Shown here piece after piece: positions 5,543 through 12,933 of a stretch of DNA of 36,953 nt (position 1 is its first letter; each line of letters begins with the position of its first letter). This DNA comes from Methylacidiphilaceae bacterium (GTDB taxonomy: Bacteria > Verrucomicrobiota > Verrucomicrobiia > Methylacidiphilales > Methylacidiphilaceae), in contig JAQTUK010000003.1 of NCBI GenBank assembly GCA_028710285.1, positions 1-36,953 of the forward strand, written 5' to 3'. The notes under the pieces are model-generated. The model saw only the letters and a program-made list of their open reading frames with translations. It was not told where the DNA came from and searched no databases. The position numbers were made by a program, and so were the translations under genes.

Positions 5543-6223
5543 ATGGACGAGTCTTCTTCCCATTCCCCGAGCCAAGAGCCTGGGGTCGTCGTCAACGAAG
5601 TCTTCCACAGCATCCAGGGAGAGAGCACGTTTGCCGGGGAGCCCTGCGTCTTCCTCCGGCTCACGGGATGCGATCTCCGCTGCCGCTGGTGCGACACCCC
5701 ATATGCGTTTTTCGAAGGGAGGAGAACACCTCTGAGCCAGCTCTTGAAAGAGGTGGAACGATTCGGCTGCGGACTCGTCGAGGTGACCGGCGGGGAGCCG
5801 CTTCTTCAGAAACACAGCCGCCTTCTGCTCCGGCTTCTCTGCGACGCGGGCTACACCGTTCTCCTGGAAACCAGCGGAGCCCACTCGATCGCGGAAATCG
5901 ATCCGCGCGTTCACCGCATCGTCGACTGCAAGTGCCCCTCCAGCGGGGAATCCTCCCGGAATCTCCCCGGCAACCTGGATCTGCTGGGCTCGCGAGACGA
6001 GGTCAAGTTTGTGATCGGCACGGAACTGGATTACGAGTGGGCTCGAGACCGTGTCCGCCAGGCTCCTTGGAGAAGGCTGGTGCGAGCCATCCACTTTTCC
6101 CCGGTGCATGGGCAGCTATCCTTGCAGACGTTAGCGGAATGGCTGCTGCGGGATCGCCTGCCCGTCCGCCTGGGCTTTCAGCTCCACAAGTGGATCTGGG
6201 ATCCCGGCCGCCGAGGGGTATAG
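5543..6223 (+). CDS. queE: 7-carboxy-7-deazaguanine synthase (radical SAM)
   Basis: QueE ring-contracts 6-carboxytetrahydropterin to 7-carboxy-7-deazaguanine on the way to queuosine. The sequence NEVFHSIQGEST is the QueE N-terminal signature. CDLRCRWC (about residues 44-51) is the C-x3-C-x2-C [4Fe-4S]/SAM motif, followed by the DTPYAF segment. VEVTGGEPLLQ is the SAM-binding GGEP block, and the C-terminal FQLHKWIWDP is also family-typical. At 226 aa it has normal length. It sits 24 nt after the flavoprotein gene, probably in the same transcript. QueD, the preceding enzyme of the pathway, is encoded about 4 kb away at 10155; queC is not seen in the window. Confidence 0.95.
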   Translation: MDESSSHSPSQEPGVVVNEVFHSIQGESTFAGEPCVFLRLTGCDLRCRWCDTPYAFFEGRRTPLSQLLKEVERFGCGLVEVTGGEPLLQKHSRLLLRLLCDAGYTVLLETSGAHSIAEIDPRVHRIVDCKCPSSGESSRNLPGNLDLLGSRDEVKFVIGTELDYEWARDRVRQAPWRRLVRAIHFSPVHGQLSLQTLAEWLLRDRLPVRLGFQLHKWIWDPGRRGV

Positions 6224-6293: not shown

Positions 6294-6518
6294 TTAGTAA
6301 GGCGCTCCGGGGGTGGTTCCCATTCCTCCCAGGTAGGCGCCCGCCGCACCCGCCTGCTGCCAGGACGGAGGACGATTCCACGGCAGGTCGGAGACCTGTT
6401 TCCCCTGTTTCGCAGCCTGTTTTTTCGCCGCCGATTGGTTTTGATCGGAGGAAGCGCATCCTCCGAGCACGATCGCCCCGGCGACCAGAATGAGACCGAA
6501 CTTGGCCTTTGTGTCCAT
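6294..6518 (-). CDS. Small predicted lipoprotein
   Basis: The product is a 74-aa protein with a lipoprotein signal peptide: MDTKAKFG, a hydrophobic run LILVAGAIVLGG, then Cys in the lipobox LGGC-ASS. The mature part is polar and Lys/Gln-rich, then has a Pro/Trp/Gly-rich tail (WNRPPSWQQAGAAGAYLGG). I do not recognise a family and assign no function. The ORF track extends it to 6635, but the signal peptide makes ATG 6518 the likely start. No clear Shine-Dalgarno precedes it; instead the upstream DNA is a dense series of hairpins (6535 onward) that could form a structured leader. Confidence 0.7.
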   Translation of the reverse strand: MDTKAKFGLILVAGAIVLGGCASSDQNQSAAKKQAAKQGKQVSDLPWNRPPSWQQAGAAGAYLGGMGTTPGAPY

Positions 6519-6534
6519 CACTTTGCGCGGGAGA

Positions 6535-6937
6535 CCCCGGCGTTCAGGCCGGGGAGGGATAGCGCGGCAGGCGAAGCCTGCCCCTTTCCCGCTTCTCCTT
6601 GTCTTAATGCTATCTTCGTCAGCGTGTATCCACACCCCTGATCAAGCTGATGCCGCGCCCGATTTTCCGAGCGCGGCATCCATTGCGCGTAAGCGCCTAA
6701 TGACACCCCTTTCGGGGTCTCCCCTCGGGATTGTCTGAAACCGGCTCCATCCTTTCGGATGCGGCGAAGACCTTCGGGCCTTTGCCTTTGCCCAGCATGA
6801 TCCCCGCCTTGCAGAGCGGCGAACTGAGGAAGCATTCGCCGGTGCGTCTTTTCGAGCTGTTCCCAACGTTTGCGCATATTTCTATGTGCCCCCTGGTCAA
6901 CCTAGCCTGTTTTCACAAGCTCCGGCCTTCAGGCCGG
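6535..6937 (-). ncRNA. Candidate structured RNA or hairpin-rich mobile-element remnant
   Basis: This is part of the 540-nt space between the lipoprotein and coiled-coil genes and holds no recognisable protein gene. It contains a close series of inverted repeats: 6535-6554 (7-bp stem), 6566-6582 (7 bp), 6649-6680 (10 bp), 6685-6696 (4 bp), 6705-6718 (5 bp), 6748-6761 (5 bp), 6818-6840 (6 bp), 6875-6886 (4 bp), 6922-6937 (6 bp). Read on the minus strand, three of them close on GAAA tetraloops (stems CCCC/GGGG, CATCC/GGATG and CATA/TATG), which points to the minus strand as the RNA strand. It would be a free ncRNA or the leader of the small lipoprotein. I could not match it to RNase P RNA, tmRNA, 4.5S RNA or a riboswitch I know. 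The outer hairpins share TTCAGGCCGGGG, so an IS200/IS605-type remnant is the alternative. Confidence 0.45.
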
Positions 6938-7058
6938 GGTAGTTGACCTTCCGCATTTGTTCTTCAAGTCCAGGGTGAACATCACACCCCTTGTTTGGGC
7001 CGGAGCAGTCTGCCTGACTACTCAGTCGGCTTTGTGAAGGGCTATCAGAATCTGAAGA
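6938..7058. other. Intergenic spacer with one imperfect hairpin
   Basis: This stretch downstream of the coiled-coil gene contains an imperfect inverted repeat around 7012-7030 (GACT-ACTC-AGTC within GCC...GGC) and no U tract. I see no gene or clear terminator in it. Confidence 0.3.
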
Positions 7059-12074: not shown

Positions 12075-12147
12075 GGGGGTTTAGCTCAGTTGGTAGAGCG
12101 TCTCGTTCGCAATGAGAAGGTCGGGGGTTCGAATCCCCCAACCTCCA
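12075..12147 (+). tRNA. tRNA-Ala (anticodon CGC)
   Basis: A full cloverleaf folds by hand: acceptor GGGGGTT/AACCTCC, D arm GCTC...GAGC, anticodon stem TCTCG/TGAGA around the loop TTCGCAA (anticodon CGC, reads GCG), and T arm GGGGG-TTCGAAT-CCCCC. The G3:U70 wobble, the identity element for alanyl-tRNA synthetase, is present. The discriminator is A; CCA is not encoded. Length is 73 nt. Confidence 0.95.
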
Positions 12148-12289
12148 CAGGTCCCGCGCGAGGGACAGGGAGTCATTCTCCGATCACCGCAAGGGTTCGA
12201 AGGAAATTTGGGGGATTCCCCGGATTGGCTTGCGGGGAATGCCTCGGGCGGGAAACCCTCTCCAAGGCTCTGCAGGCCTCCTTCTGACC

Positions 12290-12860: not shown

Positions 12861-12933
12861 TGGAGCCTAGGGGATTCGAACCCCTGACCTCCTCAATGCC
12901 ATTGAGGCGCTCTACCAACTGAGCTAAGACCCC
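12861..12933 (-). tRNA. tRNA-Ala (anticodon GGC)
   Basis: On the minus strand the sequence folds as acceptor GGGGTCT/AGGCTCC, D arm GCTC...GAGC, anticodon stem CCTCA/TGAGG around the loop ATGGCAT (anticodon GGC, reads GCC and GCU), and T arm AGGGG-TTCGAAT-CCCCT. G3:U70 is present. The discriminator is A; CCA is not encoded. It points toward tRNA-Ala(CGC), with the macrodomain gene between them. Confidence 0.95.

What the first reader, a model, noticed from the sequence alone, without database searches (positions are those of the whole stretch)
6535..6937. Undescribed hairpin-rich region with three GAAA tetraloops on the minus strand
About 400 nt without a convincing gene contain at least nine inverted repeats. 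On the minus strand, three stems (CCCC/GGGG, CATCC/GGATG, CATA/TATG) close with GAAA, and a 10-bp stem GATGCCGCGC/GCGCGGCATC stands in the middle. GAAA loops are typical of structured RNAs with tertiary contacts. The region directly precedes a small lipoprotein, so it could be a regulatory leader or a separate ncRNA. I could not assign a known class.
Basis: partly seen in the sequence, partly recalled or inferred. Interest (0 to 1): 0.7.

Follow-up and report, generated by a model that had tools for sequence, protein, structure and literature searches.

The report
IscB-less mobile element carrying guide RNA
The hairpin-rich stretch is a small mobile DNA element that has lost its nuclease gene but still encodes the guide RNA (HEARO/omegaRNA) of IscB, a relative of Cas9, and it sits, like its sister copies, exactly in front of the start codon of a host gene.

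Summary
The hairpins are real, but the RNA is not undescribed. Window 6714-6947 (-) matches Rfam HEARO (RF02033, 96.6 bits, E 9e-19), the omegaRNA of IscB. It lies in a 429-bp element, 6519-6947, with IS200/IS605-type hairpin ends. The genome (genus Methylacidimicrobium) holds four copies of this short form, all with the same internal deletion of iscB, and IscB-coding relatives. The central 10-bp stem is leftover iscB codons, not part of the RNA core. Same-genus species show the empty site. The first 16 nt outside the element would be the guide.

Best explanation: a non-autonomous element whose omegaRNA guides IscB supplied in trans to cut the empty site, favouring element retention. Identity is shown; activity is inferred.

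Unexpected: all 12 element boundaries found in this genome lie directly before a host start codon (including dapA, ksgA, miaB), and 22 of 27 IscB elements from other bacteria precede an ORF of at least 60 codons. This fits the reported NTGA target motif of the related nickase IsrB. In many copies the IscB frame ends in a TGA overlapping that start (ATGA or TGATG), which suggests that host translation survives by termination-reinitiation. I found no published statement of this, but key primary papers were not readable.

The parts
6519..6947 (-). whole non-autonomous element (429 bp), oriented with the omegaRNA 5' end at 6947
   Evidence: Copies of 428-429 bp at C213, C176 and C170, 92-93% identical, end at the same bases. 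Empty sites of all four insertions in same-genus genomes run through the junction.
6714..6947 (-). HEARO RNA (IscB omegaRNA scaffold), full model 1-211
   Evidence: Rfam RF02033, 96.6 bits against a gathering score of 83; covariation on 23 homologues.
6706..6717 (-). CCCC-GAAA-GGGG hairpin overlapping the 3' end of the HEARO match, probably still part of the omegaRNA
   Evidence: Loop is GAAA or GCAA in own-genome copies; stem is CCTC/GAGG in C170, a compensatory change.
6948..6963 (-). predicted 16-nt guide, AGAACAAATGCGGAAG, read from host DNA just outside the element
   Evidence: Scaffold starts with GTCAAC at the element end. The exact 16-mer occurs only here in the genome. Guide position and length rest on general knowledge of IscB, not tested.
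6516..6518 (-). ATG start codon of the host lipoprotein gene and first bases of the predicted target-adjacent motif (ATGG here, ATGA in the other copies)
   Evidence: Junction alignments with empty sites; boundaries of all copies.
6294..6518 (-). host gene: 74-aa lipoprotein-like protein MDTKAKFGLILVAGAIVLGGC...
   Evidence: ORF from the junction ATG; homologous ORF at the empty site in same-genus genomes; only a sub-threshold Pfam match, DUF6491.
6518..6679 (-). 53-codon relic frame of iscB (in-frame deletion derivative) whose TGA stop overlaps the host ATG (TGATG)
   Evidence: Frame open in all four short copies; matches codons of the IscB PLMP region and the C-terminal tail. Translation is not shown.
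6649..6680 (-). the 10-bp stem GATGCCGCGC/GCGCGGCATC: remains of the iscB codons for LMPCSEKRAR
   Evidence: 85% identity to the C226 iscB 5' coding region.
6534..6552 (.). left-end hairpin, the cleavage-end structure typical of IS200/IS605 elements
   Evidence: Pairs with and resembles the right-end hairpin at 6922-6940; shared with all copies and, at 78-82%, with tnpA-type elements of the genome.
6922..6940 (.). right-end hairpin, also the guide-adaptor stem-loop of the omegaRNA

Best explanation
A 429-bp non-autonomous element of the IS200/IS605 (ISC) type that keeps both ends and a HEARO omegaRNA but lost most of iscB by an internal deletion. The RNA is read on the minus strand, most likely from the promoter of the host lipoprotein gene, because its guide lies 5' of the scaffold, outside the element. 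IscB made by full-length sister elements would bind it in trans and cut the empty insertion site (guide sequence followed by NTG[A/G]), so that repair restores the element. The element lies exactly between the host leader and the start codon. Shown: identity, ends, deletion, multicopy state, empty sites, start-codon placement. Inferred: transcription, binding by IscB, cleavage, mobilisation by a Y1 transposase, and preservation of host translation by stop-start overlap.
For: HEARO match above gathering score and nine HEARO loci in the genome. Four short copies share one deletion and sit at four unrelated sites. IscB frames next to five other HEARO copies, named RNA-guided endonuclease IscB by NCBIfam at 417 bits. 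Precise empty sites in same-genus species. Compensatory changes in 20 of 44 pairs. The junction motif agrees with the NTGA motif measured for IsrB (PMC9581776). Intact Y1 transposase gene in the genome, with a similar end hairpin.
Against: No transcript data. The full-length iscB copies are split by contig ends, so no complete iscB was read in this genome. The window copy has ATGG, not ATGA; for DtIsrB an ATGG target was not cut (PMC9581776). The intact TnpA belongs to an element with a different target sequence. A complete Methylacidiphilaceae genome (G012) keeps five HEARO loci without any IscB, so the RNA can persist without the nuclease.
Confidence: 0.78

Rival explanations
1. Inert relic: a MITE-like remnant that spreads or spread only through its ends; the RNA is no longer made or used.
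For: Only four short copies. ATGG instead of ATGA at this site. HEARO copies persist in G012, which has no IscB, and several elements in G009 and G007 have degraded IscB frames.
Against: The RNA fold is kept, with compensatory changes between copies, and the window copy still scores 96.6 bits.
Confidence: 0.15
2. A regulatory leader or riboswitch of the lipoprotein gene.
For: It is directly upstream of, and co-directional with, the lipoprotein ORF.
Against: The same unit precedes unrelated genes (Bactofilin, NUDIX, alcohol dehydrogenase), and orthologous lipoprotein genes in the genus lack it.
Confidence: 0.03
3. Domesticated RNA-guided regulator: the omegaRNA with IscB acts on the host gene or on other loci rather than serving element retention.
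For: Placement at start codons and persistence without IscB in G012.
Against: Closest other guide match in the genome has 2 mismatches, and the number of weaker matches equals the control. IscB copies keep the HNH and RuvC motifs.
Confidence: 0.04

Closest known systems
HEARO RNA (Rfam RF02033) / IscB omegaRNA
   Same: Full-length covariance match above the gathering score, 5' scaffold start at the element end, homologues directly upstream of iscB in the same genome.
   Different: No iscB gene follows this copy; it would have to work in trans.
ISC / IS200-IS605 IscB elements
   Same: Hairpin ends, no target duplication, fixed target motif, omegaRNA at one end.
   Different: iscB reduced to a 53-codon relic frame; no tnpA in the element.
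Non-autonomous IS200/IS605 derivatives (MITE-like elements)
   Same: Short, multicopy, internally deleted, dependent on proteins supplied in trans.
   Different: Carries a complete guide RNA, so it could also use the nuclease in trans; solo omegaRNA loci have, from memory, been noted in Ktedonobacter racemifer (Altae-Tran 2021, not readable here).
DtIsrB omegaRNA nickase system (PMC9581776)
   Same: NTGA target-adjacent motif agrees with the ATGA next to nearly all copies; omegaRNA architecture.
   Different: Sister proteins here contain HNH (IscB), and the window site reads ATGG.

Membership tests
HEARO RNA (RF02033) | score above the curated gathering threshold over the whole model | tested here: met
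   96.6 bits against 83, model 1-211 of 211
HEARO RNA (RF02033) | conserved paired regions supported by covariation | tested here: met
   20 of 44 pairs with double-sided changes on 23 sequences; sequences are related, so counts are not independent events
HEARO RNA (RF02033) | associated HNH endonuclease ORF downstream | tested here: not met
   Only a 53-codon relic at this copy; five sister copies in the genome do have iscB
IscB OMEGA system | IscB protein with RuvC and HNH motifs in the same genome | tested here: met
   NF040563 IscB at 417 bits; PF14239 in five places; copies broken by contig ends
IscB OMEGA system | RNA-guided DNA cleavage with guide taken from flanking DNA | not testable with these tools
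   needs expression and cleavage assays
IS200/IS605 element | hairpin ends and precise insertion next to a fixed short motif without duplication | tested here: met
   12 of 12 own-genome boundaries follow the same motif; empty sites
IS200/IS605 element | mobilisation by a Y1 transposase (TnpA) | tested here: inconclusive
   One intact Y1 gene in the genome, in an element with another target motif
non-autonomous derivative | several copies with the same internal deletion at different sites | tested here: met
   four copies; junction mapped against full-length pieces for the window and C170 copies

The most novel reading that the evidence does not exclude
IscB/HEARO elements of this group are start-codon elements. 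The NTGA motif makes them land between a host leader and its ATG/GTG/TTG, in the sense direction, so the host promoter makes the omegaRNA with the host leader as guide; and the IscB (or relic) frame ends in a TGA overlapping the host start codon (ATGA or TGATG), so termination-reinitiation keeps even essential host genes translated. This would explain why the target motif is NTGA.
Probability: 0.4. Interest if true: 0.75.

Novelty: new member of a known kind. Interest (0 to 1): 0.5.

Why it matters
It closes the question of an 'undescribed' RNA by giving it a family, ends and a mechanism. It adds a multicopy, nuclease-less guide-RNA element, a natural test of whether omegaRNAs work in trans. 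The start-codon placement, if general, would explain the NTGA motif and show how a guide-5' RNA element gets a promoter and avoids killing essential genes.

Tried and rejected
Regulatory leader of the lipoprotein: rejected by empty sites and by copies before unrelated genes. The 10-bp stem as RNA core: rejected, it is iscB relic sequence, though two copies reach perfect pairing in different ways (CCGCGC/GCGCGG and CCGTGC/GCACGG). GNAS-AS1_3 hit at 7035-7056: chance, far below its gathering score. Loss of the Shine-Dalgarno by insertion: tested by anti-SD duplex energy, inconclusive (mean -3.7 empty, -5.2 occupied, p 0.13). A promoter inside or near the element: no consensus site found. Other guide targets in the genome: none beyond control. 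Literature on start-codon insertion or coupling of IscB: nothing found; Weinberg 2009, Altae-Tran 2021, Kapitonov 2016 and one further IscB/TnpB paper tried by DOI were not held. First regular-expression search for element ends gave mostly noise and was replaced by blastn.

Full report
Observation. The region is one end-to-end unit, 6519-6947.

Identity of the RNA. Rfam finds HEARO, RF02033, over the full model at 6714-6947 (-), 96.6 bits, gathering score 83, E 9e-19 (alignment). HEARO is the omegaRNA that guides IscB (stated in PMC9755519). The genome has nine HEARO loci over the cut-off. On 23 homologues from this genome and four others where HEARO was tested, 20 of 44 predicted pairs keep pairing through changes on both sides. 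GAAA loops alternate with GCAA in sister copies, and the stem at 6706-6717 is CCTC/GAGG in the C170 copy.

The element. Four copies of 428-429 bp occur (window, C213, C176, C170). Five more HEARO copies are followed by iscB frames; the protein is named IscB by NCBIfam NF040563 at 417 bits. Further contigs hold only one end, as expected if the longer IscB elements break the assembly. The short form equals the omegaRNA, a piece of iscB codons (LMPCSEKRAR...) and the iscB C-terminal tail; the joins are the same in the two copies mapped and the four short copies align throughout. One deletion, four sites, means that the short form moved, so its proteins came in trans (inference). Related short elements occur in Methylacidiphilum sp. 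Yel (G009, identified through contig NZ_LXQB01000063.1), 70-73% identical, and more distant ones in G007. The window's genome belongs to the genus of G003, which matches the Methylacidimicrobium cyclopophantes record.

Empty sites. Joined flanks of all four short insertions match through the junction in same-genus genomes. The junction is flank | ATG. Orthologues show ATG or GTG (C170 site) and ATG or TTG (C176 site) at that codon, the pattern of a start codon. Some relatives differ or carry a small indel at the junction (L190, L191, L204).

Start-codon placement. In this genome all 12 boundaries found are followed by an ATG that opens a gene. Pfam domains begin near residue 1 in most: DapA (residues 3-287), MiaB-type (14-), RrnaAD/KsgA (18-), tetrapyrrole methylase (9-), tubulin-like (7-), aminotransferase (36-), response regulator (25-); one (C9) had no family. 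Counting whether a long ORF starts there, including G009 (2 of 7), G007 (6 of 8) and G012 (4 of 5) gives 24 of 32. In IscB loci from other phyla, 22 of 27 with a recognisable end open an ORF of at least 60 codons, against 37% of ATGA sites in the same loci (P 3e-6). In this genome 12 of 12 against 50% gives P 2.7e-4. The ORF test is crude in GC-rich DNA, copies are not independent, and removal of harmful insertions by selection would also produce some of this bias. The motif agrees with the NTGA motif measured for IsrB (PMC9581776).

Stop-start overlap. In full-length elements of this genome the IscB frame ends ...AAC TG|A TG, the A being host DNA; in the short copies the relic frame ends in the same way. 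In the second genus the tail frame ends ...GGA TGA, overlapping as ATGA. Fifteen IscB frames from other bacteria read through the element end and stop in this overlap; others stop before the end. ATGA and TGATG are the two overlaps associated with termination-reinitiation (abstract of PMC6728339). The tail frame has no stop in 16 copies, with only a modest excess of third-position changes. Coupling is therefore a hypothesis. The anti-Shine-Dalgarno comparison was inconclusive.

Mechanism. Inferred chain: host promoter transcribes leader and element; omegaRNA forms with the leader as guide (AGAACAAATGCGGAAG, unique in the genome); IscB from sister elements binds it and cuts sites lacking the element; repair from an occupied copy restores the element. 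The window site reads ATGG, which DtIsrB did not cut, so this copy may be weak or inactive.

Limits. No expression data, fragmented assembly, no complete iscB read in this genome, primary HEARO/IscB papers not held. From memory, HEARO insertion before ATGA/GTGA and solo omegaRNAs were noted earlier; I could not check this, so I do not claim priority for the motif.

Noticed in passing
G012 loci L085, L088, L090, L093, L097: A complete Methylacidiphilaceae genome (G012) has five HEARO loci over the cut-off but no IscB by family or protein search; the only protein hit was a 59-residue match in the query's HNH region.
   Followed up: partly
L063 and L075; L104 and L097; L041 and L064: Different element subtypes sit before the same orthologous gene in different species (for L063/L075 host DNA is 94.7% identical, elements 68%). 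Independent insertion or replacement, unresolved.
   Followed up: partly
G000:C188:18016-18459 and C128:17690-18128: Y1 transposase (tnpA) elements, one intact and one in two frames, share the end hairpin but insert next to a different motif.
   Followed up: no
window 5543-6223 (+): ORF with the CxxxCxxC-type start of a radical SAM protein, probably queE (7-carboxy-7-deazaguanine synthase); seen in the sequence, not searched.
   Followed up: no
window 12075-12148 (+) and 12861-12933 (-): Two tRNA-Ala genes (anticodons CGC and GGC) on opposite strands within 900 bp.
   Followed up: no
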